Below, piece by piece: positions 1,982 to 59,154 of a stretch of DNA of 64,000 nucleotides. Location of the stretch: positions 124,001-188,000 of the forward strand of contig JANYGX010000017.1 in NCBI GenBank assembly GCA_025362295.1, given 5' to 3'. The notes beneath the pieces were generated by a model. It had not been told where the DNA came from. It was given only the letters and a program-made list of their open reading frames with translations, and did no database searches. Position 1 is the first letter of the stretch; each line of letters begins with the position of its first letter. This stretch comes from Sphingomonadales bacterium (GTDB lineage: Bacteria; Pseudomonadota; Alphaproteobacteria; Sphingomonadales; Sphingomonadaceae). The position numbers and the translations under genes were made by a program.

Positions 1982-1998
1982 TTGGCCCACAGCTTGCA
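1982..1998 (+). promoter_or_regulatory. Sigma-54 promoter of fliK-flgD-flgE
   Basis: TTGGCCCACAGCTTGCA has GG (1984-1985) and GC (1996-1997) separated by exactly 10 nt, as required for a -24/-12 promoter, and matches TGGC-N7-TTGCA. Transcription would start near 2008, about 25 nt before the fliK start codon. Confidence 0.75.
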
Positions 1999-2032
1999 GT
2001 GCATGTCTTGATTTACAAAAAGGAATATCGTT

Positions 2033-3436: not shown

Positions 3437-3447
3437 GGAATTATAGC

Positions 3448-4161
3448 ATGACAACAGCAATCGACACGACATCGACAACACTCAGCGCTTCAGCGACAGC
3501 TCAAAAAAGCTTATCAAGTAATTTTGACACGTTCCTTAAATTGCTGACCGCGCAGCTGCAAAATCAGGATCCGCTTAAGCCTCAAGATTCTTCTCAATTT
3601 ACCCAGCAATTGGCGACATTCAGTGGCGTTGAGCAATCTATCAAGCAAAATACAAATCTTGAAACATTGATTGGTGAAATCAAAACCAGCAACCTTTCAG
3701 CCGCAACAAATTATATCGGGCAAATAGCAACAGCCAACACGCCGAACCTGACATCAGATGGCAACGGCGGAACCTGGTCTTATAATTTAGGTGCCGCTTC
3801 TGCGACAACAGCGATAACGATTACAAACTCATCAGGTCACGCAGTGCGCTCAGCAACAGGCAGTACAGATAGTGGCCTTCACAGTTTTGTATGGGATGGT
3901 AAGGACTCCAATGGCAATGCATTGCCTGCAGGAGACTACACACTTTCTATTAAAGCTAAAACGGCAACTGATACGGATGTTATAACTTCAATTAGCCTTA
4001 CTGATAAAGTTAGTGCCATTGATAATGGACCATCAGGTTTAACAGTATTGATTGGCAAAACACCCGTAACATTAGATCAAATCACAAGTGTATCGCAGCC
4101 TGCTGCGAGCACAAATGCGACAACATCGCCACAGAATAGTGGCTCCACAACACTAAATTAA
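3448..4161 (+). CDS. flgD: Flagellar hook assembly (capping) protein FlgD
   Basis: FlgD caps the growing rod tip and guides polymerisation of the hook protein FlgE outside the cell. The N-terminal motif FLKLLTAQLQNQDPLKPQD is the family signature, followed by FTQQLATFSGVEQSIKQN. The middle part carries the FlgD Ig-like domain, with the WDGKDSNGNALPAGDYTLSI loop. The length of 237 aa is normal. AGGA sits 8 nt before the ATG. It lies between fliK and flgE in the hook operon. Confidence 0.96.
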   Translation: MTTAIDTTSTTLSASATAQKSLSSNFDTFLKLLTAQLQNQDPLKPQDSSQFTQQLATFSGVEQSIKQNTNLETLIGEIKTSNLSAATNYIGQIATANTPNLTSDGNGGTWSYNLGAASATTAITITNSSGHAVRSATGSTDSGLHSFVWDGKDSNGNALPAGDYTLSIKAKTATDTDVITSISLTDKVSAIDNGPSGLTVLIGKTPVTLDQITSVSQPAASTNATTSPQNSGSTTLN

Positions 4162-4186
4162 TTTTATTCTATTCAGGAGAAAAACA

Positions 4187-5548: not shown

Positions 5549-5678
5549 TTTAGTGAAACTATAAACTTATGTTCATTTCTATTGATCTGCCATTAACCCC
5601 ACCGCTTAGACGTTCCTTAAAGTCCCTTGGGTATAACAGCAAATACAGGGTCAGGCATGGAGTAGAAAGTTAGAGACT

Positions 5679-5969
5679 ATGATGGAAAATCAAAAATTCA
5701 AAGCCCATCAGGTGATTGGTCCGCTTGGCGAACCACTCACACTCAACTCATTGCCGGCCGCCGGAACAACTCGTTGGGTTGTTCGTCGTAAGGCGGAGGT
5801 AGTGGCAGCTGTCAAGGGAGGTCTTCTCACTCTTGAAGAGGCATGTGAACGTTATAATTTGTCAGTGGAAGAATTGCTGACATGGCAACGATCAGTTGAA
5901 AAGAATGGTATGCCTGGGTTGCGCGTGACACGTATCCAGAATTACCGGATGGTTGATAATCGTATATAA
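5679..5969 (+). CDS. sciP: CtrA inhibitor SciP (DUF1153)
   Basis: SciP is a small helix-turn-helix protein found in alphaproteobacteria that binds the cell-cycle regulator CtrA and blocks its promoters after division, including flagellar class II genes. The protein is 96 aa and carries the conserved block TTRWVVRRKAEVVAAVKGG followed by LTLEEACERYNLSVEELLTW. Its place between the hook operon and the fliF operon is common in this class. Two adjacent ATGs (5679 and 5682) could both start it. A strong terminator follows at once. Confidence 0.93.
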   Translation: MMENQKFKAHQVIGPLGEPLTLNSLPAAGTTRWVVRRKAEVVAAVKGGLLTLEEACERYNLSVEELLTWQRSVEKNGMPGLRVTRIQNYRMVDNRI

Positions 5970-5981
5970 TACAGAATACAT

Positions 5982-6023
5982 AAAAAACTGCTGTTGCTAT
6001 TATTGTAGCAATAGCAGTTTTTT
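5982..6023 (+). terminator. Rho-independent terminator after sciP
   Basis: AACTGCTgTTGCTA and TAGCAAtAGCAGTT form a stem of about 14 bp with a short loop and a single offset, followed by TTTTTT. A run of A on the 5' side makes it potentially bidirectional. It separates sciP from the fliF operon. Confidence 0.9.
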
Positions 6024-6044
6024 ACATTCTATTAACTAAATAAT

Positions 6045-6059
6045 CGGCAAAATTTGCCG
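6045..6059. promoter_or_regulatory. Palindrome upstream of fliF, candidate FlbD site
   Basis: CGGCAAA-A-TTTGCCG is a perfect 7+1+7 palindrome, 93 nt before the fliF start codon. An almost identical palindrome lies before flgK at 34866. In Caulobacter, FlbD binds ftr sites, including one at the fliF promoter where it represses. Assigning this one to FlbD rests on that analogy. Confidence 0.5.
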
Positions 6060-6152
6060 AGCGTTCATATCTCCTTTACCTCATTCACATAAAGTCCTCA
6101 GTGTGAGAAGTATCAGCAGTCATGTTGGTTCAGGTCTATTGAGAGAATTCTG

Positions 6153-7862
6153 GTGGAACAAATAAAGCGTCTAATCGCCGATTTCGGCGCGCGAAAACTA
6201 ATTATTATTGGAGCAGTAACAACTATCGTTATTGCAAGTCTCATTGCCTTTACGGTAATTGCAAATAAACCACCAATGGCATTGCTTTATAGTGATCTTG
6301 AAAATTCTTCGGCTCAACTCATCATAGAAAAGCTTAAAACTCAGAAAATATTTTTTGAAGTGAGCAAAGACGGCACCAGTATAATGGTGCCTGAAGATAA
6401 ACTTGGTGAGCTTAGGTTGTCGCTTGCAAGCGAACGGCTTGGTGGTCAACTTGGCTATGAGCTATTAGACAAGCAAGATGCCTTAGGCACGACAAGTTTT
6501 CTTCAATCAATAAATAAGGCGAGAGCCATAGAGGGAGAATTAGCACGTACGATTCAATCACTTGAACAGGTTAAATCAGCGCGCGTTCATTTGGTATTGC
6601 CGGAAAAACAACTTTTTGAAAAGGAAGAGCACAAAGCTTCTGCCTCTATCACATTGCGAACACGTGGAAATTTACCCGTCAGTCAAGTGAATGCAATACG
6701 CTATTTGGTATCCGGCGCTGTTCCGGATCTTGACCCTGGCAAGATATCAATTGTTGATCAAAACGGAACGTTGCTCGCCAAATCGGATGGCAACGGGCTC
6801 GGTGATACTGCAAATAGTTTGATTGAACACCAAAACATCGCAGAACAAAAATTGCGTCAGCAAATAGAAACCATGCTTGAGCGCATAGTAGGGCAAGGGC
6901 ATGTGCGTGCTGAAGTGGCGCTTGAGCTTGATGCCAATCAAATTCGTCAAGATGCTGATATATATGACCCTGATAAACAAGTTGTTGCGCGCTCTACGAC
7001 CGTCGAGCACAATGACCAAAATCGAAATCAGGATAATGGCGGTGAAGTCACAGTTGGCAATAACGTGCCAACACCTGGCTCAGCTAACGGCACTACAACG
7101 GCACAGCCATTGCCTCAAGTGGCCGGCGGTTCGCAGTCCGCTTCAAAAGAATACTCTGAACAAGTTGAATATCAAAATTCCAAAACACACACTGTCACTG
7201 TGCGTGAATCAGGGACTATAAAGCATATTTCGGTTTCTGTAATTATTGACGGCATTTACAGTAACAATCCACAAGGAAAGACAACTTACAGTTCAAGATC
7301 GCAAAATGAAATTGATCAATTGAAGCGTTTGGTAGAAAGCGCTGTGGGCTATAATGCAGAGCGTGGTGATACTGTAGAAATTGCAAATATGCGCTTTATA
7401 GACAGCCAAATGGATAAATCTGATGTCGTAAAATCGGCATTTCCACTTGGTTTATCAGGCGCTGATGTCACCAAACTCGCACAAACAGGCATATTGGCTG
7501 TCGTTTCAATTCTGGCATTATTTTTTATTATTCGGCCACTGCTAAAATTGTTCACACATAATAAAAATTTAAGCCAGGGTAGTGGTGGACCACTGGGTAA
7601 ATCAGAAGATCAGTTGGCTTTGTTACCGCCAAATAAATTCGAGATAGAACAACTGATGTCAAAGGCAAACTCAGGTGATTCTGATGCGCTTTTACAATTG
7701 CAAAACTACAGAAACGAAATCGATCTGCCGCTGGAAAATGAGATTGATGTCGCGCAAATCGAAGGCAGGGTGAAGGCCGCTGCAATAAGAAAAGTAGGCG
7801 AAGTTATTGAGCGCCACCCGAGTGAAGCAGCTTCAGTGATTCGTCAATGGATGTATGGATAA
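6153..7862 (+). CDS. fliF: Flagellar MS-ring protein FliF
   Basis: FliF forms the MS ring in the inner membrane, the foundation of the basal body and the anchor for FliG. The protein is 569 aa. A first membrane segment lies at about residues 18-38, followed by the YscJ/FliF periplasmic domain with [15 protein letters not shown] and [10 protein letters not shown] variable periplasmic region and a second membrane segment at about 446-466 come next. The acidic C-terminal tail ends IRQWMYG and is the FliG-binding segment. The start is GTG with a GAGAG sequence upstream. It heads the operon, and its stop overlaps a possible fliG start by one base. Confidence 0.96.
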
Positions 7863-7876
7863 TGTCGAGGCAAAGT

Positions 7877-8899
7877 ATGACAGGAACATCAGTTCTGGAA
7901 CACGCTAAAATGAGTGGATTGGATAAAGCTGCCTCAATAATGCTGGCGCTTGGGCAAGATTATGGCAGGCCTATCTGGGATCAGCTGAGTGATGATGAAG
8001 TTAAAGAACTTTCAACAGCCATGTCTGGCTTGGGCGCTGTGCCAGCAGCCATTATAGAAAAATTGTTCATTCAATTTGCAGCCGACGTTTCTGTTGTTGG
8101 ATCTTTATATGGTTCGTTTGATAATACTGAAAAATTACTGACATCAGTTTTACCAGAGGATCGCGTTAATCAAATAATGGAAGAAATACGCGGCCCAGCT
8201 GGCCGTACAATGTGGGATAAACTTGGAAACGTTCATGAACAAGTGCTCGCAACTTATTTAAAAAATGAATATCCGCAAACTGTAGCTGTGGTGCTGCAGA
8301 AAATAAAACCCGAGCATGCAGCAAGAGTTTTAACGGCACTTCCTGATGAATTCTCTATGGAAGTTGTGATGCGTATGTTGCGAATGGAAGCTGTACAGAA
8401 GGATGTTTTAGACAAGGTGGAAAGCACACTACGTGTTGAGTTTATGTCTAATCTTGCAAGAACAGCGCGTCGTGATAGCCATGAAACATTAGCTGAAATA
8501 TTTAATTATCTTGATAGGCAATCTGAAGACAGGTTTCTTTTGTCATTGGAAGAAAGAAACCGTGATTCAGCCGAAAAAATTCGTGCCCTCATGTTTACAT
8601 TTGAAGACTTGTCCAACCTCGATCCAGGCGGCGTACAAACATTGTTGCGGAATATAGAGAAGAACAGGTTGGCATTAGCTCTAAAAGGGTCTTCAGAAAA
8701 ATTAAGAGATTTATTTTTCTCAAATATGTCCGAGCGTGCTGCTAAAATTATGCGTGAAGATATGGAATCCATGGGACCAGTTCGATTGAGAGATGTAGAT
8801 GAAGCACAGCAGCAAATGGTGCTGATTGCTAAACAGTTGGCAGAGACTGGTGAAATAATGCTTATTGATGCCAAAGGTGATGATGAGTTGGTATATTGA
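7877..8899 (+). CDS. fliG: Flagellar motor switch protein FliG
   Basis: FliG is the rotor protein that transmits torque from the stators and controls rotation direction. It contains the FliG N domain ([13 protein letters not shown]), the middle-domain motif [15 protein letters not shown] (usually EHPQT, here EYPQT) and the charged C-terminal torque helix ([20 protein letters not shown]). I chose the ATG at 7877, which has GAGG 6 nt before it and gives 340 aa. A start at 7862, overlapping the fliF stop as TAATG, would add five residues and is possible. fliH follows with almost no gap. Confidence 0.95.
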
Positions 8900-15193: not shown

Positions 15194-16969
15194 ATGGCAA
15201 CGGACGTTGGTAAAATTGTGACTCGATCTGCGAGCGTCAGCGATAAATCGATTGTTGTGAATTCAGGTCAGCCACAAAGCCAAAACGCAGGGCCGCAGCA
15301 GGATCAATCCAGGCAGGCTAAAATATCTGCGGAACCCACTATAAGCAAAGATAGCGTGGCCGTAGAGCTTGCTTCAAGTTTAGCTCGAGTTAAAGTTGGC
15401 GATGTTATTATTGGTTTTGTTGGGCATCAATCTGCCAATGGGACATCGTACTTAGTCACAGACCGGGGTATATTCACCCTGCCACCTGACATACATCTGG
15501 ATGTGAACACGACTGTTTCAATTGAAGTTACCAGTGTTAATAAAACAATTGTAGCTGTGATTACGCCCCAGGCGACAATAAACAGTGCTGAAAGAAGTCA
15601 GATAGCTAATGTTCAGCTTGCGCTTGTTGACACCACGGTATCGGCACATGACAGTTTTGGTGTTGTGGCTCTTGACCCATTGCCAGAGCTTGCAACAGTG
15701 GGGGATGCAACCATTCTCGTAAGGCAGGTTGCGGAATATTTTTCCGGTCAATCAAGCCTTTCAGCTGTACCATCAGAAATAGCCTTGTCACTGCCAGACA
15801 AGCCAATAAGCAATTTGATGATCGTGCCAGATGCGCCAGCGCCTTTGCTCTCAGGGCAGGTTCCAAGCACACCTGTGATTATACCGGCGACTAACGGTTT
15901 GCAGCCGCCGTCTATGGTGTCAAACGCCCCCACAGTTACATTGCCAATCAATGATAATATCGCATTGAGTGACTTTCGCGGCGTGCTATCATCCATGACA
16001 AACGATACTATTATAGCATCGACATTAGGAGGCATAAAAGCAGCACCAGTAACGCTTCTAGCCATATTGCCGCAGAGTTATGTCTTGCCCAATATTCAGC
16101 CCAGCCTGCTTGCAGGCGGCGCTACGTTGCCACTGACATCACTTGTGAGCAGTGGAAGGGCATTGCTTGCATCTGTCGTCAATAGGGTGGACGACACTCA
16201 TGCTGTCATTGTGCCGCTAAACCAGCCTCAAGAAAAATTCTTATTGCAAATATCCAGCAGCCGAATGGCAGATCTGCCGTTAAACGCGCATATTATTCTT
16301 CTGGTAGAAGGTGACACTACACTTGCAGGTGAAAAATCGAAGAACTTGCTTGTTGATACGCAGCACGCAAAAACGAAACTGCTTGTTTCTTTGATGAACG
16401 ACACTTTTGTATCAGCTCAATCAGTGCTCGGCGAGACGGGTTTAATCAATCACATTCCAGCGCCTGGCGACAAGCTAGCGGCACAAGTGGTTTTCTTGCT
16501 TCATGCTCTTAAGGCCAACAAAGTATTTGCATCACAAATGCAACTGAATACATCGCAGTCCGCACCATTGTCACGCCTGGCGGCCAGTATAGAAAATCTG
16601 ACGTATCGCGCCGCCGCCGCCAGCTCAGATACTCACGTATCGCAATCGCGCGTCACAATGGTTCCTTTGCGCATGGCAGATACGCTCGTGCCTTTAACCA
16701 TCATTGCGCCACATGCCTATAATGATGAGAAAGGCGATGAAGCTGATAGCAATCACAATGATGCAGAGCTTGAAAAGCAGTTTGAAATAAGCGTAAAATT
16801 TAACGAGGTCGGGAACATCAGAATGGTTGGTCGTGTGCGCACAACACACCTTGATATCAAAATAAGGTCAGATCAGGAATTTCCGGATACTTTGAAGACA
16901 ACAACGAAGAGTGTTTTTATGGATACACTTGCCGCAGAGGGTTTAACCGGCAAACTCAGCTTTTACTAA
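15194..16969 (+). CDS. FliK-like protein at the end of the fliF operon
   Basis: This 591-aa protein has a Ser/Gln-rich start, then a beta-strand-rich section (VKVGDVIIGFVG, YLVTDRGIFTLPPD), a long Pro/Ala/Thr/Ile-rich linker, and a C-terminal domain with NEVGNIRMVGRVRTTHLDIKI followed by LAAEGLTGKLSFY. That last part resembles the FliK/Flg_hook C-terminal fold, where a LG-x-(I/V)-x-(V/M) strand pair is followed by a helix. Proteins of this kind often follow flhF-flhG in alphaproteobacteria. A second length-control or export-switch role is inference. It starts 3 nt after flhG, and its 3' end overlaps the convergent PEP-CTERM gene by 14 nt. Confidence 0.6.
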   Translation: MATDVGKIVTRSASVSDKSIVVNSGQPQSQNAGPQQDQSRQAKISAEPTISKDSVAVELASSLARVKVGDVIIGFVGHQSANGTSYLVTDRGIFTLPPDIHLDVNTTVSIEVTSVNKTIVAVITPQATINSAERSQIANVQLALVDTTVSAHDSFGVVALDPLPELATVGDATILVRQVAEYFSGQSSLSAVPSEIALSLPDKPISNLMIVPDAPAPLLSGQVPSTPVIIPATNGLQPPSMVSNAPTVTLPINDNIALSDFRGVLSSMTNDTIIASTLGGIKAAPVTLLAILPQSYVLPNIQPSLLAGGATLPLTSLVSSGRALLASVVNRVDDTHAVIVPLNQPQEKFLLQISSSRMADLPLNAHIILLVEGDTTLAGEKSKNLLVDTQHAKTKLLVSLMNDTFVSAQSVLGETGLINHIPAPGDKLAAQVVFLLHALKANKVFASQMQLNTSQSAPLSRLAASIENLTYRAAAASSDTHVSQSRVTMVPLRMADTLVPLTIIAPHAYNDEKGDEADSNHNDAELEKQFEISVKFNEVGNIRMVGRVRTTHLDIKIRSDQEFPDTLKTTTKSVFMDTLAAEGLTGKLSFY

Positions 16970-17915
16970 TTCGTTTGCGCGACGCCAATAATCCAGTCAT
17001 TCCCAAAGCAATGATGGCTAATGAAGCTGGCTCAGGCACAGTCGCGTCTAACGGACGAATGCTAACTTTCAGCTGAACTTTAGCGGTGTTTATTTCGCCT
17101 GAAGATGTTGTGTAACCCTTACAGCCGGAACCAAGACCAGCTTGTCCGCAAGCTTCATCGGATAATGTTTGAAAAGCGTTACCCGCCCCGTCAACGCCTA
17201 AGAAACTAAACGTGTATTCATTGCCATTATATTTGACAACGTCTTTTGTAAAAGTTTTATTGTAATCTGCCAGTGACATAGCAAATATGTCATTACAACC
17301 ATTTGCACCAGTGGTGCCCGCTGCACAGCGGAATTGATTGCCAAATTGTGAGCCTAGGGGTGACGCTGCGAAAAAATCGAGCTTGAATTGTTTGGACATA
17401 GCCGCGGCACCACCGGGCATAGCCATTGAAAAATTACCGTCAATAGAAGCTGTCTTGAGAGTAGCAGAGTTATAAAACACGGATTGATGATTGTGCGTAA
17501 TCTCGGCAATGTTGAATGTAAGATCTGTGGATGAACCATTTGTTATAGTCGATACGGCTGGCGCAGAGGACATATTGGTAATTGTTATCCCGGATTTAGC
17601 GGCATCGCCACCTTTGCACACGCCATCACGACAATTAGCGCCAGATAAGCCATTTGATACTGTTGTTCCGCCACCTTGAAGCAGTTGCGTTGCCATTGAA
17701 GCTGTTCCGCCGCTGCTGGAACTGGAACCTTGGCTGCTTGGTGTCGCGTCGATGAATGTTTTATCCTGACCGCTGGTGTTGCTGAGTGAGTCGCGCCAGC
17801 TCGTGAAGCCGGTGTTTGCGGTCCAATCAAAAGTTGTCAATGCGGGTCCTGCATTAGCGAGACCAGCTATTCCGACTGAAATTCCCACCAATGTGGAATA
17901 AAATAAGGACCGCAT
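16956..17915 (-). CDS. PEP-CTERM sorting domain protein
   Basis: This is an exported protein of 319 aa with an N-terminal signal peptide (MRSLFYSTLVGISVGIAGLA) and a C-terminal tripartite sorting signal: VPEPASLAI, a hydrophobic helix and the basic end SRKRISKS. Such proteins are cut and sorted by an exosortase, usually in exopolysaccharide producers. The body is Ser/Thr/Gly/Asn-rich with paired cysteines (NCRDGVCKGG; QFRC...NGCND; EACGQ...GSGCKGY). GGAG lies 8 nt before the ATG at 17915, so I prefer this over longer frames. No exosortase is in the window. It converges on the last gene of the flagellar operon. Confidence 0.85.
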   Translation of the reverse strand: MRSLFYSTLVGISVGIAGLANAGPALTTFDWTANTGFTSWRDSLSNTSGQDKTFIDATPSSQGSSSSSGGTASMATQLLQGGGTTVSNGLSGANCRDGVCKGGDAAKSGITITNMSSAPAVSTITNGSSTDLTFNIAEITHNHQSVFYNSATLKTASIDGNFSMAMPGGAAAMSKQFKLDFFAASPLGSQFGNQFRCAAGTTGANGCNDIFAMSLADYNKTFTKDVVKYNGNEYTFSFLGVDGAGNAFQTLSDEACGQAGLGSGCKGYTTSSGEINTAKVQLKVSIRPLDATVPEPASLAIIALGMTGLLASRKRISKS

Positions 17916-18250
17916 TAACCAAACTCCCGTATACACAGCCATATAGCCTGAAATGCCACACAAAATCAAGGCAGCAATACATGGATAAATCAATGCAGTA
18001 ATTATGCCAATATAATAGCTCTATGGTTTTGAGCTGTTTATAATCAATTAACCATAAATTGAATATCAGACTTGTAAATCAATCCGACATGTAAAGTCGT
18101 TCTTTTCATACAAAATTAACCTGATTTTTCGGTCGTTATTCGAGGATCAACTTCTAAATTAGGCATGTTCTTAGCTAAGATTTTACGATTTCAAACTATC
18201 ATATTTTTAGTTCAAAAAAAACAAACACATTATTCTCAAAAGGTCTGAAA
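17916..18250. other. AT-rich intergenic region
   Basis: This 335-nt gap lies between two divergent exported-protein genes. It contains several TTAA-type and TATAAT-like tracts, and a partial CtrA-like box (TTAACCATAAATTGA, around 18048), but nothing I can assign with confidence. It must hold both promoters. Confidence 0.4.
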
Positions 18251-49694: not shown

Positions 49695-51119
49695 TTGATA
49701 TCGACCACCTCGACTATAGTTTCTGGTGCGCGCAATACGGCACTTGCGTTCATTCTGCGCCTTGGTGGCCGCTTGCCATTTCTGCTGATTGCTGGCTGGC
49801 TTTATGGTGTATCGCCAATGGGTCGCTTTGCCTATGCAACTTGGGCGGCTGAGCTGGTTGGGGTGCTGGCAACCGTCGGTCTGCGGCATGGATTGACAGC
49901 ACATCTGACGGCAGCATTAGACAAAAATCGTGCGGCATGCGAAGGCCTGGCACTTGGCCTAGTGGCCGCACTGTTCAGTGCGCTGGTGTTGATGAAGCAC
50001 CCAGGCTTGATGTTTCCCTATGGTGCGCGCTCCATTGGCGAACGATTGTTTCCACTCATTATAATTGCGCTTGTTGCCAGTGATATTCTGTTGGTAAGTC
50101 TGGCTTACACACATAATCTGAAGCCGCAAATAACGGCGCGTGCCCTTGTTGAGCCTTGGGTGCTGACTATTTTTGCGCTCGGCTTCGCATATACGCGATA
50201 TAAGGCTGATGGATTGCTGATCGCTTATGTGCTCTCGCAACTGGCTGCGACAGCTGTATTTGTTCAAGCTTTTCGCGCATCTTTCAAACCTGTGATGGTA
50301 TCGGTTGCAGATGTTTTCCGGCTTATGATGAACAGTCTGACTTTATGGGCGGCTGATGCTGTCGAGCTTGGTCAGCGCCGTGTTGACGTGCTTATTCTCG
50401 GCCAGCTGGCCACACCCCATGCCGTGGGTTTGTATTACACTGCATTTCAGGTGGCGACCTTAGTGCAGAAAATGCGTTTGAGTGTCGAGCCGATTATGGC
50501 TCCCGTAATGGCAAAGCTTACGCAGGATCAAGATAAAAAAGCTGCCGCGATACAGCTTGATCAGGTGCGGTTCTGGCTGTTCTCAATCCAGCTGGGCATC
50601 GTGCTGGCGCTTGCCACGCAGGCTCATGTAATCATGGGGTTGATTGGCCCCAGTTTTGCCGAAGGTGCCATTGTGATGATCCTTATGCTTGTTGCCGAAC
50701 TGTTGTGGGGCAGCTTTGGCATTGCCGAAATCCCATTGTTGTATGCAACACCCCACCGCAACCTGCTGATCGGTTTTGCCGCGATTGTGCTGGAGACCAG
50801 TGTCGCACTTGTTCTCGTGCCAAGATACGGTGCCATGGGAGCGGCTATTGCGTTGATTTCAGCCTTTGCCCTGGCAGCCATCTGGAAAACGCTGGCGACC
50901 GCCAAACTTTTAGGTGCAAAACCGCACTTCCAACGCTTTATATGGCCGCTGATTGCGGGGGCTTTGGGTTTGCTTGTTTCACTCAGCGTCAGCCACTTTG
51001 TGAATGACCTCTCTGGTGCTATACTCAGTTTATTGTGTTTTATAGGGTTTTATGCCGGAACACTTTGGTTTTTGGGCTACAATGCTGAAGATAAGCAACT
51101 TTTTCGCCGACTCACATGA
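49695..51119 (+). CDS. Polysaccharide flippase (oligosaccharide exporter, MATE/Wzx-like)
   Basis: A 474-aa protein with about 12-14 membrane helices and Arg at the start of the fold (RNTALAFILRLGGRLPFL). VDVLILGQLATPHAVGLYYTAFQV and VLVPRYGAMGAAIALISAFA are typical of lipopolysaccharide/exopolysaccharide flippases. The start is TTG at 49695 with AGGCGG about 10 nt before it; no ATG is available in frame. No glycosyltransferase cluster is next to it. Confidence 0.8.
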   Translation: MISTTSTIVSGARNTALAFILRLGGRLPFLLIAGWLYGVSPMGRFAYATWAAELVGVLATVGLRHGLTAHLTAALDKNRAACEGLALGLVAALFSALVLMKHPGLMFPYGARSIGERLFPLIIIALVASDILLVSLAYTHNLKPQITARALVEPWVLTIFALGFAYTRYKADGLLIAYVLSQLAATAVFVQAFRASFKPVMVSVADVFRLMMNSLTLWAADAVELGQRRVDVLILGQLATPHAVGLYYTAFQVATLVQKMRLSVEPIMAPVMAKLTQDQDKKAAAIQLDQVRFWLFSIQLGIVLALATQAHVIMGLIGPSFAEGAIVMILMLVAELLWGSFGIAEIPLLYATPHRNLLIGFAAIVLETSVALVLVPRYGAMGAAIALISAFALAAIWKTLATAKLLGAKPHFQRFIWPLIAGALGLLVSLSVSHFVNDLSGAILSLLCFIGFYAGTLWFLGYNAEDKQLFRRLT

Positions 51120-51129
51120 AGGATTATCA

Positions 51130-52128
51130 ATGACTGAAAACACCACAGTTCGCCTTGCCAAACGACCAACAGGCATGGTTACAGCAGATTGCTTCACCAT
51201 TGCCAAAGAGCCTGTGCGCCAACCCGCGCATAATGAAGTGTTGGTGCGTGTGGATTACATCTCGCTTGATCCGGCAATGCGCGGTTGGCTTAATGAAGGT
51301 AAATCCTACATTCCGCCCGTCGGCATTGGCGATGTTATGCGCTCTGGCAGTGTTGGCGAAGTGCTTGCTTCTGGTTCATCTGAATTACAGGTTGGTGATT
51401 TTGTCTATGGCCCAATGGGTGTGCAATCTTACTACACCGGTTTGGCCAAAGAGCTCTCAAAAGTTGATCCGAACCTCGCACCATTGCCGCGCTATCTGGG
51501 TGGACTTGGTATGCCGGGGATGACAGCCTATTTTGGCCTTATGGAAACCGGCCAGTATAAGGATGGGGAAACGCTGGTGGTCTCCGGTGCATCTGGGGCT
51601 GTCGGCGCGCTTGTCGGGCAAATTGCCAAACTCAAAGGCGGCCGCGTTATTGGCATTGCCGGCGGGGCCGACAAATGCACATATTGTGTTGAAGAACTCG
51701 GTTTTGATGCGTGCATTGATTACAAGAACGAGAATGTACCAGCACGACTGAAAGAGCTCCTCCCCAAAGGTCTGGATGTTTATTTTGACAATGTGGGTGG
51801 TGATATTCTTGAGGCCTGCATGGATAATTTACGCCCTAAAGCCCGCGTGGTTATATGCGGAGCGATTGCCGGCTATAACGACTGGAGCAAAATAAAAGGC
51901 CCGCGCAACTATCTAAACCTGCTGGTTTACAACGCGCGCATGGAAGGCTTTGTGGTGTTCAACTTTGCCAATAGATACGCTGAAGGGCAGGCTGCGATGG
52001 TGAAGTGGATGTCTGAAGGCAAGCTTAAATTCCGTGAAGATATTCAAGAGGGTATTGAGCGTTTTCCAGAGGTGCTCAATATGCTGTTTACGGGCGCGAA
52101 TTTTGGCAAACTGGTTTTAAAGGTTTGA
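51130..52128 (+). CDS. NADP-dependent oxidoreductase (zinc-independent MDR family)
   Basis: A 332-aa medium-chain reductase of the CurA/prostaglandin reductase type. It has LDPAMRGWLNEGKSYIPPV, the coenzyme motif VVSGASGAVGALVGQIAKLKG and DVYFDNVGGDILEACMDNL, and ends with NFGKLVLKV. There are no zinc-binding cysteines. AAGGA lies 7 nt before the ATG at 51130. It is the last intact gene before the accessory island. Confidence 0.93.
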   Translation: MTENTTVRLAKRPTGMVTADCFTIAKEPVRQPAHNEVLVRVDYISLDPAMRGWLNEGKSYIPPVGIGDVMRSGSVGEVLASGSSELQVGDFVYGPMGVQSYYTGLAKELSKVDPNLAPLPRYLGGLGMPGMTAYFGLMETGQYKDGETLVVSGASGAVGALVGQIAKLKGGRVIGIAGGADKCTYCVEELGFDACIDYKNENVPARLKELLPKGLDVYFDNVGGDILEACMDNLRPKARVVICGAIAGYNDWSKIKGPRNYLNLLVYNARMEGFVVFNFANRYAEGQAAMVKWMSEGKLKFREDIQEGIERFPEVLNMLFTGANFGKLVLKV

Positions 52129-52261
52129 AGTCGCAACCAACGGCTGTGTGGTAAAAAGTGGCCTGCGGCCACGTGTGACAAAAGCTTTTCTCATTGATTA
52201 ATACCAACCGCCCGATGACGTGACTTGGTTTGGGAATTCATTGATATACACCTCCCTTCGT

Positions 52262-52283
52262 CATGCCGACATGCGTCGGCATG
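52262..52283. repeat. REP-like palindrome
   Basis: CATGCCGAC-ATGC-GTCGGCATG is a perfect 9-bp stem with a 4-nt loop. Its composition resembles REP sequences that are moved by RAYT (Y1-family) transposases. Confidence 0.6.
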
Positions 52284-52379
52284 GCGGGTGATAGCAATCA
52301 TCATCCCACGAATGATGCTGTGCGCAGATGCAAACCGACAGCACTCCATGTAAGTCAACTCATAGGGCAATTGGTATGG

Positions 52380-52415
52380 TCTCCAATAACGTCTATTCAT
52401 GGCACCTTTGGCTGG
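52380..52415 (+). repeat. 36-bp direct repeat, left copy
   Basis: This matches 55134-55169 at 34 of 36 positions. It includes ATGGCAC-C-TTTGGCTGG, which would read M-A-P-L-A-G before a stop. The other copy reads M-A-R-L-A-G, the start of many RAYT transposases. Confidence 0.75.
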
Positions 52416-52490
52416 AATCTAAAACCGGCCGAACCCTCGCCAAAGCCAAACCGGGGCCAAAGCCGATGAAGAAAAAAGGGGTTAGGTAAC

Positions 52491-53009
52491 GTGTCAGCGG
52501 AACCTACTGCCGTTCAGCAGCTTGCCGTGCACACCATCGGCGGTGCCGTGCAGGCGGCTCAGGCGTTGCTGGTGCTGGTGCCCAGAGATAGCCCGCTGGT
52601 GGTCGAGGCGCAGGTGGAGAACAAGGACATCGGCTTCCTGAAAGTTGGCCAGCCGGTGCGGGTGAAGATCGATGCCTTTCCGTTCACAGATTACGGCGTG
52701 ATCGATGGCACGCTTGTCGGCCTCTCCAACGATGCCATCCAAGATGATAAGCCAGCACCTGCCAGCGCTGGCGGCGCCGAGCGCAGCCGACCGCATCTCT
52801 ATTATCTAGCCCGCATCAGCCTGAAGCAGCGCAGCATCCGCGCCTGTGCAGGCCTCGGGCGGCGACAGGCGAGCCAGTGCCCGCGCCACATCCCGCTGCA
52901 GCCGGGCATGAGCGTGGAGGCAGAAATCCTCACCGGCAGCCGACCGATCATCAACTACCTGCTCAGCCCGATATTAAAGGGCATCGATGAAGCAGGGAGG
53001 GAGCGGTAG
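52491..53009 (+). pseudogene. Remnant of an HlyD-type secretion membrane-fusion protein
   Basis: Only the C-terminal ~150 residues remain. VQQLAVHTIGG, SPLVVEAQVENKDIGFLKVG, VRVKIDAFPFTDYGVIDG and PGMSVEAEILTGSRPIINYL are typical of type I secretion adaptor proteins (HlyD/PrtE). The usual N-terminal membrane helix and coiled coil are absent, and a stretch after DAIQDDK is replaced by unrelated Ala/Ser/Gly-rich residues and a displaced piece, indicating internal rearrangement. GC content is clearly higher than in the flanks. It is probably not functional and was acquired by transfer. Confidence 0.75.
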
Positions 53010-53553
53010 AACGCGAAGACATTAATTGAGTAACCCATCCCTTTCAGATGAGAGGCAAGGGGTGGAGCGGTCCAGCAGGCGATAATCTGGCTTAGAAACG
53101 CAAAATAGCTATACAGGCACTATCATCTTTTTTGGGCAATGGATTTTGATATTATCGCCCCATCCCTGACCCTCCCCCCTGAAGGGGATAGGACGCACCC
53201 GGAGCGTCGCATCATGCTCTAAAGGCAGCCGCCGGGTGTCATAAATATGCAATCAAACTGCAAACAGAAGTTTAAAGCGATTGCAGGCCGCCTGTCTATG
53301 ATTTTATGTTTCAGGATATAGCATTCCGCGAGCCTGTGTGCAACAGGCGCACAAACAAGCGGCTCGAACGCAGTGGCTGGGCCCGCTTGATTTTGTGATC
53401 GTCTGGTTTTGGGTTTCAAATTAATATCTATTAACTGCCGTCGGGGATTTATTAACAACTATGCAGATTCGTTGTTGATTGGGAATGAAAAGTGTGGGAT
53501 ATACAACTACTGTTTTGGTGAAGAAAATTTGCAGGTCTATGGTGAGCGGGCAG
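53010..53553. other. Intergenic stretch in the island
   Basis: No gene supported. It contains a C/G-rich inverted block (CCCCCC-TGAA-GGGG near 53177) of a kind seen as intergenic repeats, and AT-rich DNA before the next gene. Confidence 0.4.
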
Positions 53554-54972
53554 ATGTTGATGCTGATGAAAAAGTTTCACGGACTCATCCATAATCACAC
53601 ATGGAGAACTGCTGCATTTGCTGCTGCATTTATTGTGATCATGCTTGCTGCGTGGCTCGGTTGGCAGAGGGCACATTATGTGCAATTTGCAGATGGTTTG
53701 ATTATGCCAAATCAAAAAGATACGTATGCAGACTTAATCAATCACACACCTACGCTCATCGTCAATTACAGACCGGGTGAAGCGCCAAATAAAAAAATCA
53801 TTATGTCAACTATCAGGCGTTATGATAATTTCAGTACTTTTGTATATATGCTTGCTCAGCACTCTTCTCAATTAATCAATAAAGAAGAAACCACAGGGTC
53901 TATTTGGGCAGTCGATAACTTTGGAGTTATGGATGCTAACCCAATGCTCAATATTCTAAAGTGCGGAAGCAGCAAATATTATTATGTTAGTTTTCAAGGG
54001 GGCAACAATAAAAAAATCAATGAATATGACATTTTGCTAGACAGAAATGTTATTCAAAAAAATCACTCTGGCAGATTATTATATGATCGAGATGTTAGTA
54101 ACGATAAGCCAGGATACATACTCAAATATAAAAAATATAATATTACATATCAACTATTATCATATTCTAAACTTTACCAATCAGACTTGTGTGCTGAGAT
54201 GTCAGCCATTCATTCACATAATCCAGTTGCAAATTTGTTATATTCATCTGCTCTTATTGATGATTTTTCCATCACCATAGATATGCTGCTTATGCAAATG
54301 TCTGCCCCATATCATCTTTCTCCATGCGCTGGGTTGAATGGTGTATCATGTGGTGGTTATCATGGCGGATGTCTCTTTAAACCCTATTGTCAACTCAGAA
54401 AAATTGTACTTTCAGATATTTGCGATGCTTCTGATTATGATGTTTTTATAACCCTGCACTCATATGCATTATGGCAGACTAACAAGCTTGATAGTAAAAA
54501 ACTTACAGAGCGTCTATTTATACTTAACAATTATCTTAGGACATTATGTCCTGCAAATCACGGCGTTAATCAACAGGCAATTAAGTTAAAATATGCCGTA
54601 TCAAACTCGAAATCAGAAAACCTCAATTCTTTTTTACAAAATGTGCCATACACGCAGCCAAAATTACTTCATCCCGGTGCATTTCATCGGTTTGCGCCGA
54701 TAACCCCAATCGATTATTTGGCGCAGTTGGTAGACAAACAAAAACATGCAAAGTCTGATCCATATGTTCCGGCAATAAAAAGAGGTATTCATATGGACGA
54801 TTTTGCTTTTTTTGCAACAGATGCAGTTTACAGTTATTGTGAAATATATAAATCTATAGAAAAATCTCAAAGAAACTATTATAAAATCCTTCGCTATTCA
54901 GCGGTGCCGGATAATAATTTGTCTGAATGGTATGTTAGAAATGATACTGATTTGTTTGAAATTTTTTGCTAG
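53554..54972 (+). CDS. Unknown AT-rich protein with one membrane anchor
   Basis: I do not recognise this protein (472 aa from the ATG at 53554; starts at 53485, 53539, 53560 or 53566 are also possible). A basic N-terminus and one membrane helix (RTAAFAAAFIVIMLAAWLG) suggest an inner-membrane anchor with a large periplasmic domain. Notable features are a Cys-rich stretch (CAGLNGVSCGGYHGGCLFKP then YCQL and DIC) that could bind metal or form disulfides, and many Tyr, Asn, Ser and Lys codons. It is far more AT-rich than its neighbours and lies between the 36-bp repeats, which points to transfer. It is a long intact frame, so it is probably a real gene. Confidence 0.65.
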   Translation: MLMLMKKFHGLIHNHTWRTAAFAAAFIVIMLAAWLGWQRAHYVQFADGLIMPNQKDTYADLINHTPTLIVNYRPGEAPNKKIIMSTIRRYDNFSTFVYMLAQHSSQLINKEETTGSIWAVDNFGVMDANPMLNILKCGSSKYYYVSFQGGNNKKINEYDILLDRNVIQKNHSGRLLYDRDVSNDKPGYILKYKKYNITYQLLSYSKLYQSDLCAEMSAIHSHNPVANLLYSSALIDDFSITIDMLLMQMSAPYHLSPCAGLNGVSCGGYHGGCLFKPYCQLRKIVLSDICDASDYDVFITLHSYALWQTNKLDSKKLTERLFILNNYLRTLCPANHGVNQQAIKLKYAVSNSKSENLNSFLQNVPYTQPKLLHPGAFHRFAPITPIDYLAQLVDKQKHAKSDPYVPAIKRGIHMDDFAFFATDAVYSYCEIYKSIEKSQRNYYKILRYSAVPDNNLSEWYVRNDTDLFEIFC

Positions 54973-55133
54973 GCACTTTGGAAAAAATAGGAGATGAAAT
55001 ATTGGTAAATTAGTAAATGCAATACAGCAAACAACATATACAGACCCTCATACAAATATGGTGCATACTGAGTATTTTATTAAGCAGGTTCCGGTGACAC
55101 GTTACTTAACCGCTTTTCTTGACATCCGACTGA

Positions 55134-55169
55134 TCTCCCATAACGTCTATTCATGGCACGTTTGGCTGG
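55134..55169 (+). repeat. 36-bp direct repeat, right copy
   Basis: Matches 52380-52415 at 34 of 36 positions, with single differences at 55139 (C for A) and 55160 (G for C). Confidence 0.75.
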
Positions 55170-55377
55170 TCTTATGGTGCCCGGTATCCCCAACAGTCAA
55201 CCATCAACGAACATGACGTGGCGCTCCCAGCTTGACACCGCGGAACATCAGAACCTGAGAAGATGCTTCGCCAATGACGATGAGTCAATGCAAAGGGCTT
55301 TTGGTATTAGATGGAATCATAAACATCATCTTCAAGATTGTTTCAGACGGTGGCAAACGTGGCTGCGCTATCATTAG
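55153..55377 (+). pseudogene. N-terminal remnant of a RAYT/Y1 transposase-like gene
   Basis: The frame begins MARLAGLMVPGIP, very close to the MARLARxVxPGxPHHVTQRG start of REP-associated tyrosine transposases, then loses all similarity. GGTTCCGGTGACAC lies about 65 nt upstream; I recall similar sequence before such transposases but cannot confirm it here. The HUH motif and catalytic Tyr regions are absent, so it is a fragment. Confidence 0.5.
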
Positions 55378-56260
55378 TCTTTTCAGTTCCAAAGATTACG
55401 CCTGTGCCATATTGCACGATCCAGAAATTTTGCTCTCGTTTTGACGCTCTCGACAGAATTGCAAGAACCACAGAATCCCAAATGATTCCATTTTTCGTAC
55501 TTCTGACAGGTTTTAGTTTGTATTCCGGTTCCGGTGACAGCAAGTTCCCATTTCCTGTGCGATTTCCAATTTCTTATGATATGCGATGACGCTGATTTAA
55601 TTTCCTCTAACATGTTACCTTGCTCCCTACCTCGGCACCACTCCAGCCTGCAATTCCCCCTCATGTGCCATGCCTTCCACAAACGTCCTCCCCATGCGCC
55701 AGCGCTTGCCAACGATCGCTGATGATCACCCTGTCCCAAGGGGAGAAGGTATTCGTTGCGGTGCATTTGGGTCCGGTCCAGCGCAGCGACGACCTCGCCA
55801 CGAAGGCCGGTAAAACCAGCCAGGGTCTTCATCGCTGGGGTGGTGGGCCATAGCCTCAGCGCCAGTGTGGCGAACAGCAAAACGAGCACGATAATAAAAG
55901 AGAACATCATGGGAACTTTCAGGGTGATTTGATTGATTGAAGGGTAAATATAACCCATACCGCAAATATTGTCAACAATTATTTTCCGTTATATAATTTT
56001 TTTCACATCACAGCAAATCATGCTTCAAGATATTATGGCTTGATTTCGGCACTTATGGGCGACATGCGCTTCCATAACGAAAGCTCAAACGGCGATGCTG
56101 CTGGTTGCTTTGTGCTGGCGCGACGGGCATCAGGTTGTTACATGGTCTATCATATAAAAGTGACATGGTTTGGCTCATGGTTTTGCTGACAGTCCCATGG
56201 GCAGTCTGTGGGTCACAACCACATGCTTTTGTTATAAATTGTTTTTAAAGTGAGTGTATA

Positions 56261-57913
56261 ATGGCCTACCAATACGCCTTCGTTATGAAGGATCTGACCA
56301 AAACCTATGCCGGTGGCAAAGCAGTGCTTAAGAACATATATTTATCTTTTTACCCTGGAGCCAAGATTGGTATTATCGGTGCCAATGGCTCGGGTAAATC
56401 GACGCTGATGAAAATCATGGCAGGTATGGATACGGAGTTCACCGGCGAGGCCTGGGCGGCGGAAAACATCAACGTTGGCTATCTGGCGCAAGAGCCAGAG
56501 CTTGATTCTGAAAAAGACGTGAAAGCCAATGTGATGGTGGCGGTCGCCGACAAGCAAGCAATCATGGACCGCTATAACGCATTGATGGCCGATTATTCAG
56601 ATGAAAATGCCGACGAGCTTGGCAAGTTGCAGGATGAAATTGATGCAGGGGATTTATGGTCACTCGACAACCAGATTGAAATCGCCATGGATGCGCTGCG
56701 CTGTCCGCCGTCCGATGCTGATGTGACGAGTTTATCCGGCGGTGAAAAACGCCGTGTAGCGCTGTGCCGCTTGTTGCTGGAAAAGCCCGACATTCTGCTG
56801 CTTGATGAACCAACCAATCACCTTGATGCTGAATCCGTTGCCTGGCTGGAAAAACATTTGCAGGATTATGCCGGCACGGTGATTCTCGTCACCCACGATC
56901 GATATTTCCTCGACAATGTGGTCAAGTGGGTGTTGGAGCTTGATCGTGGGCAGGGCATTCCACACGAATGCAATTATTCCGGCTGGCTTGAGAAAAAAGC
57001 CAAGCGCATGGCGGCCGAAGAAGGCCAGGAAGAGAGCAAGCAAAAAGCTATGGAGGATGAGCTGGCATGGATTCGCTCCTCACCCAAGGCACGGCAATCG
57101 AAATCCAAAGCGCGTATCAAGGCCTATAATGAGATGATTGATGCGCAAGCCGATCGTGGCCCAGGCAAAGCGCAAATTCTTATTCAGCAACCTGAGCGCT
57201 TGGGTGGCACAGTCATCGAAGCGACGAATTTATCAAAAAGCTATGGTGATAAAATGCTGATTGACGATTTGACGTTTAGTTTGCCGCCTGGCGGCATCGT
57301 TGGCATCATTGGACCGAACGGGGCCGGTAAAACTACGTTGTTCAAAATGATCACTGGTGTCGAGCAGCCGGACAGTGGCAGCATTCGCATGGGCGAAACT
57401 GTGAAGCTAGGCTATGTTGATCAATCGCGCGATGCCCTGAAAGCTGACAACAATGTCTGGCAGGAAGTGTCAGGCGGTAACGAGCAATTTTATTTTGGCA
57501 AGCATCCGGTGAGCACGCGTGCCTATGTTGGGGCATTCAACTTCAAGGGCTCTGACCAGCAGAAAAAAGTTGGACAGCTTTCTGGCGGAGAGCGCAACCG
57601 GGTGCACATGGCAAAAATGCTAGCCAAGGGGGGCAATGTGTTACTGCTCGATGAGCCGACCAACGATCTTGATGTGGAAACCTTGCGTGCACTCGAAGAG
57701 GCGTTGGAAAGCTTTGCAGGCTGCGCCGTTGTTATCAGCCACGACCGTTTTTTCCTTGATCGGCTGGCCACACATATTCTGGCATTTGAAGGTGACAGTC
57801 ACGTTGAGTATTTTGAGGGCAATTTCGAAGCTTATGAGGAAGACCGACGGCGCAGGCTGGGCGATGCTGCTGACCGGCCGCACCGCATCAGCTACAAGAA
57901 ACTGACACGGTAG
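56261..57913 (+). CDS. ettA: Energy-dependent translational throttle protein EttA
   Basis: EttA is an ABC-F protein that binds the ribosomal E site and gates translation by ATP/ADP ratio. The 550-aa protein has two ATPase domains: [32 protein letters not shown] and [15 protein letters not shown], then [31 protein letters not shown] and [15 protein letters not shown]. The EttA arm (residues ~95-145) and the linker with [19 protein letters not shown] are present. Confidence 0.96.
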
Positions 57914-57918
57914 ATACT

Positions 57919-59154
57919 ATGGTAATGCCGCCTGACCCAAAAGCGTTGGAGGCCATTAAACGGTTTGAAGCGCGGCAATCATCGATACCATTAAAAAAGC
58001 AACCATTTGAAAGTAAAGTTACTCACCAACATACCCATCGTGTCTGGAAATTACTGATTTTTACTGGTGTGATCTGCACCGTTATAGTACTAATTTCAGT
58101 TTTTTCTGTTGAGTATCTCGTTGGTCAACCATGGCGCGTGCTGTACACAAAAGCGTTGGCACAACAAATTAAGTGGACAGAAAGTCGTCATCCGTTTTTA
58201 GCGCCCGCATTGTCGGTGCTTAAATGGCCATTGCTGGATGCGCTGCCTGCCGAACCTCTCATGCTTTATGCCAGCAACGAAGCGGAAGCGCATGACCCAA
58301 GCTACCACAAGTCCGTCCATCTGCCTGAGCGTTCACTCTCAGGTTATGTGGCTATGGCACGTGAGGGCGGCACATTGGTGTTGCCGCCAGGGCGCTACCC
58401 TGACTGCGCCGTGATTAACCAATCTGTCTTGACTATTCGAGCTGAAGTTCAGGGGCAGGCGCAATTTGATGGTGGTGCATGCCAAGGCAAGGCAGCGCTT
58501 GTTGCGCACGGCAACAACCTCACGGTTGATGGGCTTGTGTTCAAAAATATTCGCGTGCCGGATGGCAATGGGGCTGGTATCCGTCACGAGACCGGATCGC
58601 TTACTGTCAAAAACTCGATTTTTTATAATAGCGAGAACGGCATTCTCACAACATCTGACGATGGCCTTGATTTGACAGTTGATAAATCTTTATTCTCACA
58701 CCTGGGTGGATGTAAATTTTCCAGCGGGTGTTCGCACAGTATTTACAGCGGTACCATCAACAAGTTGACACTAACAAATTCTGTTTTCAAAAACAGCGCT
58801 GGTGGTCACTTTCTGAAGTCGCGCGCTCATTCGGTTCAAGTATCAGGCAACACATTTGACGATACGGATGGTGTAAGTTCATGTCTTATTGAATTGCCAT
58901 ATGGTTCAAACGGAGAAATTCAGAATAATCAGTTTGTAAAAGGCATTAAAGCCAGAAGTCGTTTTTGCTTTATCAAGGTTGGCGCTGAGGGTGCGAAAAA
59001 TGACAGTTCAAAACTTTATATTAACGGAAATACAGCTGAGGGTAAAACGCCTGTTTCAGTTTTTGTACAAAACAAAACGTCCGCACCGCTGTATGTAAAA
59101 GATAACAGCACAGTCGGCTTTATAATCTCAGCAACGGGTAAAACACGCCACTGA
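57919..59154 (+). CDS. Membrane-anchored right-handed beta-helix protein
   Basis: A 411-aa protein with a cytoplasmic N-terminus of ~43 residues, one membrane helix (~residues 44-66) and a large periplasmic part. Parallel beta-helix repeats occur from about residue 140, e.g. GGTLVLPPGRYPDCAVINQ, NNLTVDGLVFKNIRVPDGNG, SLTVKNSIFYNSENGI and LTLTNSVFKNSAGGHFL. Several Cys pairs lie in the helix. The fold is shared with pectate lyases and surface glycan enzymes; no catalytic residues could be assigned. It starts 5 nt after ettA. Confidence 0.8.
   Translation: MVMPPDPKALEAIKRFEARQSSIPLKKQPFESKVTHQHTHRVWKLLIFTGVICTVIVLISVFSVEYLVGQPWRVLYTKALAQQIKWTESRHPFLAPALSVLKWPLLDALPAEPLMLYASNEAEAHDPSYHKSVHLPERSLSGYVAMAREGGTLVLPPGRYPDCAVINQSVLTIRAEVQGQAQFDGGACQGKAALVAHGNNLTVDGLVFKNIRVPDGNGAGIRHETGSLTVKNSIFYNSENGILTTSDDGLDLTVDKSLFSHLGGCKFSSGCSHSIYSGTINKLTLTNSVFKNSAGGHFLKSRAHSVQVSGNTFDDTDGVSSCLIELPYGSNGEIQNNQFVKGIKARSRFCFIKVGAEGAKNDSSKLYINGNTAEGKTPVSVFVQNKTSAPLYVKDNSTVGFIISATGKTRH

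What the first reader, a model, noticed from the sequence alone, without database searches (positions are those of the whole stretch)
53554..54972. Unrecognised AT-rich membrane-anchored protein with a Cys-rich motif in the island
The gene has an intact frame of 472 codons, a single N-terminal anchor and a CxxxxxxCxxxxxxC-type cluster (CAGLNGVSC...YHGGC). Its composition differs sharply from its neighbours. It matches no family I know and is the only intact gene in a decayed island, so selection may be keeping it.
Basis: seen in the sequence. Interest (0 to 1): 0.55.

Follow-up and report, generated by a model that had tools for sequence, protein, structure and literature searches.

The report
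Orphan toxin-immunity gene beside broken exporter
A one-of-a-kind membrane-anchored gene sits in the place where related bacteria keep a gene thought to protect them from their own giant secreted toxin, and it looks like a shield that stayed behind after the toxin and most of its export pump were lost.

Summary
The ORF is real: 53554-54972, 472 codons, 35.5% GC, one N-terminal anchor, 10 Cys. No homologue was found in four family libraries, PDB, phage, plasmid and contig collections or five genome searches. The decisive evidence is its neighbour: 52510-53009 is the 3' end of a type I secretion adaptor gene (hlyD), 96.6% identical to an intact copy on contig C11, with homology ending at the stop codon. 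In 16 loci of this exporter type (15 in relatives, plus C11), a short gene lies between hlyD and a large, mostly RTX ORF. It is lower in GC than hlyD in 16 of 16, N-anchored in 15 of 16, and its family tracks the large protein's variable N-terminal head (10 of 11 pairs versus 0 of 109; all ten from one five-locus class). Heads carry HExxH or GHSxG in 12 of 16. Two other genomes have islands of hlyD tail plus one gene without toxin; in one the gene is Imm11 and the order hlyD tail, immunity gene, RAYT, ettA matches the window. Best reading: an orphan immunity protein of a T1SS-exported polymorphic effector. Neutralisation is inferred, not shown.

The parts
53554..54972 (+). ORFan: N-anchored, presumably periplasmic 472-aa protein; proposed orphan immunity protein (start could also be 53560 or 53566)
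   Evidence: real coding frame; no homologue; position after hlyD
53605..53670 (+). N-terminal transmembrane anchor (approximate)
   Evidence: hydropathy; helix 16-47 in the model, residues 21-40 being its only blocks with mean pLDDT above 70
54325..54390 (+). Cys cluster C-x7-C-x6-C-x5-C
52510..53009 (+). 3' tail (last 165 codons and stop) of a type I secretion adaptor gene hlyD; frame open, 5' part missing
   Evidence: 96.6% identity to C11:1729-2228; TIGR01843 positions 281-422 of 422, 159.2 bits, below the full-length cut-off of 208.65; 17 differences, 14 at third codon positions
52411..52506 (+). remnant of the 3' end of a RAYT-like element (name recalled; Y1-type transposase) abutting the hlyD tail
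   Evidence: 93.8% to L027:2305-2400; the gene there matches PF01797 Y1_Tnp
55083..55307 (+). remnant of the 5' end of a second such element, closing the island downstream
   Evidence: 74.5% to L027:1742-1843 over 55089-55190; 92% to C15:149915-150134 over 55087-55307; 44-nt inverted pair of 55083-55126 with 52465-52508, 82%
54973..55082 (+). AT-rich (30% GC) tail after the ORFan with an AGGAG site at 54989-54993 and no long frame; could be the stub of a lost downstream gene (inference)
   Evidence: read
52199..52377 (+). dispersed repeat next to the left RAYT remnant
51052..52128 (+). left flank: oxidoreductase-like gene, open (name recalled from its sequence, not searched)
56261..57913 (+). 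right flank: ettA-like ABC-F gene, open (name recalled); 72.6% identical over 559 positions to the gene in the same relative place in L131

Best explanation
The gene works like an orphan immunity gene. It once stood between hlyD and a giant effector gene in a type I secretion locus. Such effectors carry an N-terminal head that differs between loci and often has an enzyme motif (lipase-like, HExxH peptidase-like, or an SLT domain), and the gene just upstream encodes a matching, usually envelope-anchored protein. Here rearrangement between RAYT-like elements removed the exporter ATPase, the 5' part of hlyD and the effector. What remains is the hlyD tail and this N-anchored, Cys-containing protein, which would face the periplasm and block the head of that effector when sister or rival cells deliver it. 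Shown: the hlyD tail, the slot in relatives, its co-variation with the head in one class, and two other toxin-less tail-plus-one-gene islands. Inferred: that this ORF is a slot gene, that it faces the periplasm, how the loss happened, and that the protein neutralises an effector.
For: hlyD tail 96.6% identical to the intact C11 copy, homology ending at the stop codon. C11 carries the end of a HlyB-type ATPase, hlyD, low-GC genes and an SLT-domain ORF. All 37 hlyD places listed from 308 genomes were looked at: 15 of 20 loci of the first batch have an ORF of at least 800 aa downstream. With C11, 16 slot genes: 16 of 16 lower in GC than hlyD; 15 of 16 with a single N-terminal hydrophobic segment versus 4 of 30 window genes. 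Slot family follows the head: 10 of 11 head-sharing pairs share it, 0 of 109 others. Large ORFs have 11-46 GGxGxD repeats in 14 of 16. HExxH or GHSxG in the first 560 aa of 12 of 16, 0 in the other 36,858 aa, 1 in 12,784 aa of window proteins. The five related GHSxG heads match a T6SS lipase effector, 7ubz, E 1.7e-4. Toxin-less parallels: L131 (hlyD tail, Imm11 at 25.2 bits with cut-off 22.1, RAYT, ettA) and L125 (hlyD tail, a 31% GC gene, then normal GC).
Against: No sequence similarity to any slot gene or known immunity family. It is longer (472 aa) than every gene directly before a large ORF (114-430 aa). The cognate toxin is absent, and no effector or slot-gene remnant was found in 52100-56265. 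A 544-bp stretch without a gene, partly of ordinary GC, separates it from hlyD. All ten head-slot co-variation pairs come from one class of five loci; the eleventh head-sharing pair does not share the slot gene. Five of the six GHSxG heads are that same class. The second batch of 13 regions gave no intact RTX giant; one (L132) holds effector-like DNA in broken frames. In the two named plasmid loci opened (of 213 records), the slot gene misses my anchor threshold of 2.0 (1.92 with a lipobox-like site; 0.35), as does C11's (1.44), L125's gene (1.58) and the L131 Imm11 gene (0.21). Slot genes are lower in GC than the large ORF in only 10 of 16.
Confidence: 0.62

Rival explanations
1. It is an accessory or maturation factor of the same T1SS locus (for example a toxin-specific chaperone, anchor or processing protein), not an immunity protein.
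For: Same position and co-variation with the effector head would also fit a dedicated chaperone or anchor; the HlyC gene found in the neighbouring slot of some loci is an accessory gene.
Against: Retention without effector or exporter is expected for immunity, not for a chaperone; the same place in L131 holds an Imm11-family gene with no effector; head motifs suggest enzymes against which the producer must protect itself.
Confidence: 0.15
2. It is an unrelated ORFan that landed by chance between RAYT remnants next to an hlyD tail, from a phage, plasmid or other donor, with a function of its own.
For: 544 bp separate it from hlyD; no similarity to slot genes; RAYT remnants on both sides; a weak PHROG match, E 0.0026.
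Against: No phage, viral-contig or plasmid homologue (one phage hit at E 0.6); anchor, low GC and position fit the slot; tail-plus-one-gene islands without toxin occur in two other genomes.
Confidence: 0.18
3. It is a dead gene, an open frame not yet decayed after loss of its locus (not exclusive of the best explanation for its origin).
For: The hlyD tail beside it is also open and cannot work alone; no expression data; promoter-like sites in 53000-56300 exceed shuffles (17 against 9.5, sd 2.6) but lie on both strands and none is a clear site for this gene.
Against: 472 codons without a break while the large effector gene is gone entirely; the two hlyD copies differ mostly at third positions (14 of 17), so some time has passed since they parted.
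Confidence: 0.3

Closest known systems
Orphan immunity protein of an Rhs/T6SS locus (Serratia Db10 2280; PMC10539506, abstract and passages seen)
   Same: single immunity gene kept without its cognate effector, protects against rivals' effector
   Different: T6SS, immunity gene downstream of an effector with C-terminal toxin; there protection was shown, here it is inferred; no match of the window gene to a named immunity family
CdzI of the Caulobacter Cdz type I secretion bacteriocin (PMC5380434, abstract and passages seen)
   Same: alphaproteobacterial T1SS-exported antibacterial system with an inner-membrane immunity protein
   Different: Cdz toxins are small glycine-zipper proteins (86 and 84 aa) and CdzI is a small transmembrane protein; here giant, mostly RTX proteins and a 472-aa single-anchor protein
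Imm11 family (PF07791) gene in locus L131
   Same: same relative place: hlyD tail, this gene, RAYT, ettA, with no effector
   Different: no N-terminal anchor (0.21) and 214 aa; no similarity to the window gene detected
Polymorphic toxin systems as surveyed in PMC3482391 (start of abstract and passages seen)
   Same: conserved trafficking part, variable toxin part, dedicated immunity gene
   Different: there the toxin domains are described as C-terminal; here the variable part is N-terminal and the candidate immunity gene lies upstream

Membership tests
Immunity protein of a polymorphic toxin system | neutralises a cognate toxin | not testable with these tools
   needs an experiment
Immunity protein of a polymorphic toxin system | encoded beside its toxin | tested here: not met
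   no effector or remnant found in 52100-56265; hence at most an orphan
Immunity protein of a polymorphic toxin system | match to a named Imm family | tested here: not met
   Pfam and NCBIfam scans
Slot gene of the hlyB-hlyD-slot-giant loci | follows hlyD of this subtype on the same strand | tested here: met
   hlyD tail ends 53009, ORF starts 53554, same strand
Slot gene of the hlyB-hlyD-slot-giant loci | N-terminal hydrophobic segment, no later one (common, not universal: 15 of 16) | tested here: met
   hydropathy 2.72, no later segment
Slot gene of the hlyB-hlyD-slot-giant loci | abuts or overlaps the giant gene | tested here: not met
   giant gene absent; AT-rich DNA ends 110 bp downstream at a RAYT end
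Slot gene of the hlyB-hlyD-slot-giant loci | homology to another slot gene | tested here: not met
   phmmer against ORFs of the loci, best E 5.1 and 0.21; blastp to the L125 gene alone E 0.097
Type I secretion adaptor HlyD (TIGR01843), for 52510-53009 | alignment to the model | tested here: met
   159.2 bits over model 281-422 of 422; truncated, so below the 208.65 cut-off
Phage or plasmid protein | homologue in phage, viral or plasmid collections | tested here: not met
   one phage hit at E 0.6 and one PHROG of unknown function at E 0.0026

The most novel reading that the evidence does not exclude
In this bacterial family, T1SS-exported giant RTX effectors form a polymorphic toxin system built back to front: the variable enzymatic head is N-terminal and its immunity gene lies upstream, so the exchangeable unit (immunity gene plus head) sits between two conserved blocks, the hlyD tail and the RTX core. 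Toxin-less islands of hlyD tail plus immunity gene, like the one in the window, would then be a reservoir of cassettes that can recombine through the hlyD tail, and shields against non-self heads.
Probability: 0.35. Interest if true: 0.7.

Novelty: new variant of a known kind. Interest (0 to 1): 0.5.

Why it matters
If right, an ORFan with no detectable homologue gets a testable role from its context, and a little-described class of secreted weapons (T1SS RTX proteins with exchangeable N-terminal enzyme heads and upstream immunity genes) becomes visible in environmental alphaproteobacteria. It also gives a simple rule, 'hlyD tail plus one low-GC gene', for finding further orphan immunity genes that sequence searches miss.

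Tried and rejected
Homology searches led nowhere: Pfam, PHROGs, NCBIfam, PADLOC, PDB sequences, phages, plasmids, viral contigs, genome contigs, the own genome, and samples of 59 (relatives), 397 (family), 396 (order), 385 (class) and 398 (phylum) genomes, overlapping and each counting the own genome; apart from the gene itself, E was never below 0.01 in the genome searches. The two contig-collection scans used six peptide patterns and reach close relatives only. Single-sequence AlphaFold2 failed (mean pLDDT 36.7), so no fold search was run. The genome-contig scan with the gene 49695-51119, meant to name the organism, found nothing. The gene 57919-59154 has relatives at 48% identity or less outside this genome in 40 genomes searched and gave no usable synteny. 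The second batch of hlyD loci was meant as a hold-out test of the slot rule; it had no intact RTX giant (two large ORFs were flagged, both without GGxGxD repeats), some regions were cut by contig ends (L129, L134) and one effector is in broken frames (L132), so it neither confirmed nor broke the rule, but it revealed L125 and L131. L134 is also an hlyD tail, followed by HlyC-like and slot-class genes up to the contig end, so it cannot be called toxin-less. Of the own genome's eight HlyD-like matches, only C11, the window copy and C28 were looked at; C28 has no giant gene in the 10 kb taken. Pfam gave no family for 10 slot or slot-like genes scanned.

Literature: the listings of ten searches (three returned no paper) showed no title on T1SS RTX effectors with variable N-terminal heads and upstream immunity genes. 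I opened five papers: passages of PMC3482391, PMC5380434, PMC10539506 and PMC9111745, and the outline of PMC7073777. PMC9111745 names T1SS among the routes used by its CRCT/CRCA toxin modules, so a link of polymorphic toxins to T1SS is itself already in print. The library is partial. One Fisher test printed was a placeholder and is not used.

Full report
The observation. The frame 53554-54972 encodes 472 residues; the first in-frame start after a stop is at 53479. Sequence simulated with the same nearest-neighbour composition never gave more than 181 open codons in 500 trials. GC is 35.5%, against 46-56% in the kilobase bins 50001-53000 and 55001-58000. Its codon-preference score is nevertheless inside the neighbours' range. 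It has one N-terminal hydrophobic segment with none later and 10 Cys, four in a cluster C-x7-C-x6-C-x5-C.

An ORFan. NCBIfam and PADLOC gave nothing and Pfam only E 0.08; PHROGs gave one match at E 0.0026 to a 99-residue family of unknown function, which I treat as chance. The own genome has one copy. In samples of 59 relatives, 397 family members, 396 of the order, 385 of the class and 398 of the phylum (overlapping, each counting the own genome), the best match elsewhere was E 0.0188. Phages, plasmids, viral and genome contigs and PDB gave no relative. A single-sequence structure model failed.

The neighbour is the key. Searching the own genome with the flanking DNA showed that 52510-53009 matches contig C11 at 96.6%. 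C11 is a 4.6-kb contig with the end of a HlyB-type ATPase (TIGR01846, 402 bits for the part present), a HlyD (TIGR01843, 336.8 bits, cut-off 208.65) and then low-GC genes up to an ORF with a transglycosylase SLT domain, cut by the contig end. The homology with the window ends at the hlyD stop codon. Of 17 differences, 14 are at third positions; 3 codons change the residue. So the window holds the last 165 codons of a second hlyD whose 5' part is gone. At 52411-52506 lies the 3' end, and at 55089-55190 the 5' end, of elements related to one on C15 whose gene matches Y1_Tnp, PF01797; I call them RAYT from recall.

What normally follows this hlyD. A search of 308 genomes of the family with the C11 HlyD listed 37 places in 32 genomes including the own, at E up to 1e-40. 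All 37 were looked at: 20 loci, 13 regions covering 14 places, and three places in the own genome. In the first batch 15 of 20 have a downstream ORF of at least 800 aa; three others run into a contig end (L103, L112, L116) and two have none (L115, L121). Adding C11, where only 192 residues of the ORF are present, gives 16 loci. In 14 of 16 the large ORF has 11-46 GGxGxD repeats; L106 (880 aa) and C11 have none. Pfam confirmed RTX repeats in the four of these loci where it reached that part: L102, L109, L111, L113. Between hlyD and the large ORF lie one to four mechanical ORFs of 100 aa or more. One type is HlyC (PF02794, two scanned) or Sel1-like (one scanned, just under its cut-off). The gene just before the large ORF, called slot B here, ends between 19 bp inside it and 49 bp upstream of it. 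It has lower GC than hlyD in 16 of 16, but lower than the large ORF in only 10 of 16. It has one N-terminal hydrophobic segment in 15 of 16 (4 of 30 window genes, 6 of 18 other slot ORFs, 0 of 16 heads). C11's slot gene is the miss, and the L114 start was reset by me.

Slot B follows the head. Similarity among the large proteins is broad in the core but absent or limited to few loci over roughly the first 200-600 residues. Of 120 locus pairs, 11 share the first 200 residues; 10 of these share slot B, and none of the 109 other pairs does. All ten come from one class (L107, L108, L109, L113, L114), so this is one clear case of co-inheritance plus consistent absence elsewhere; the eleventh pair (L106, L120) shares heads but not slot B. 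Heads carry HExxH (6) or GHSxG (6, five of them that class) in 12 of 16; the rest of the large ORFs has neither in 36,858 aa. These motifs were not confirmed as families by Pfam or NCBIfam. The profile of the five class heads finds a T6SS lipase effector (7ubz, E 1.7e-4) and other lipases (E 0.02-0.07) in PDB. Two of 213 plasmid records with a HlyD match were opened: Sphingopyxis sp. DBS4 has an HELGH head behind a slot gene with a lipobox-like site (hydropathy 1.92), while Sphingobium sp. TomTYG46 has a slot gene without an anchor (0.35) and a head without these motifs.

Toxin-less parallels. Among the second batch, which had no intact RTX giant, two loci mirror the window. In L131 an hlyD tail is followed by a gene of the immunity family Imm11 (25.2 bits, cut-off 22.1, E 1.2e-5), a RAYT gene and an ettA-like gene 72.6% identical to the window's. 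The window has the same order and orientation: hlyD tail, ORFan, RAYT remnant, ettA. Among the 35 loci L102-L136, which reach different distances downstream, only L131 has this ettA (E 1e-20) and only L131 has the RAYT (E 1e-5). In L125 an hlyD tail, about 350 bp from a tRNA-Thr, is followed at its stop by a 186-aa gene of 31% GC with a hydrophobic segment near its start (1.58, below my threshold) and, by eye, another near its end; GC then returns to normal. Neither island has similarity to the large ORFs or slot genes at E 1e-3; L125 ends with its contig some 2.4 kb after that gene.

Mechanism. From established knowledge: producers of secreted antibacterial enzymes keep an immunity protein where the enzyme acts, and orphan immunity genes can be kept because rivals still deliver the toxin; protection by an orphan was shown in Serratia (PMC10539506, passages), and a T1SS bacteriocin with an inner-membrane immunity protein is known in Caulobacter (PMC5380434, passages). 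Applied here, the ORFan would be an inner-membrane-anchored periplasmic protein that binds a lost effector head. Topology and binding are inferred. The AT-rich 110 bp after its stop, with an AGGAG site, may be the stub of the effector gene, cut by the RAYT end (inference).

Weak points. The ORFan resembles no slot gene, is longer than all of them, and is 544 bp from hlyD. An unrelated insertion or a decaying frame remains possible. Confidence in the immunity reading is 0.62. I do not file it in any named immunity family, since the tests for a named family and for a neighbouring toxin were not met.

Noticed in passing
L069/L032 (contig C27) 2062-4188, minus strand: A Tox-URI2 toxin C-terminus (PF15653, 20.9 bits, cut-off 20) with an Imm39 gene (PF15568, 92.6 bits) directly after it: a second polymorphic toxin system in the same genome.
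   Followed up: partly
L027 (contig C15) 3-1188, minus strand: Toxin-like C-terminal ORFs (by eye; the two scanned have no Pfam match) followed by a small membrane-anchored protein at the contig end; another candidate toxin-immunity pair.
   Followed up: no
window 52199-52377 and own-genome copies: A dispersed repeat of up to about 190 bp with whole or partial copies at about ten other places in this genome, with a palindromic core by eye.
   Followed up: partly
window 52465-52508 and 55083-55126: Two RAYT element ends in the same orientation (3' end on the left, 5' end on the right) enclose the roughly 2.57-kb hlyD-tail/ORFan segment, a composite-like arrangement.
   Followed up: partly
L030 (contig C11) 2441-4645: Four low-GC ORFs after an intact hlyD, ending in an SLT-domain ORF cut by the contig end, with a Cys-containing secreted-looking gene just before it: a likely complete effector locus.
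   Followed up: partly
L132 (G007) 1-8200: hlyD split into two frames followed by effector-like DNA in broken frames; either a decayed locus or sequencing indels.
   Followed up: partly
L134 (G246): A further hlyD tail, followed by an antisense HlyC-like gene and a gene of the L107-L109 slot class, up to the contig end.
   Followed up: partly
window 57919-59154: N-anchored protein (beta-helix-like by eye, recalled) with two paralogues in the genome (C3, C2) at 40% and 37% identity.
   Followed up: no
window 16956-17993, minus strand: A secreted-looking protein with a C-terminal PEP-CTERM-like tail (recognised by eye).
   Followed up: no
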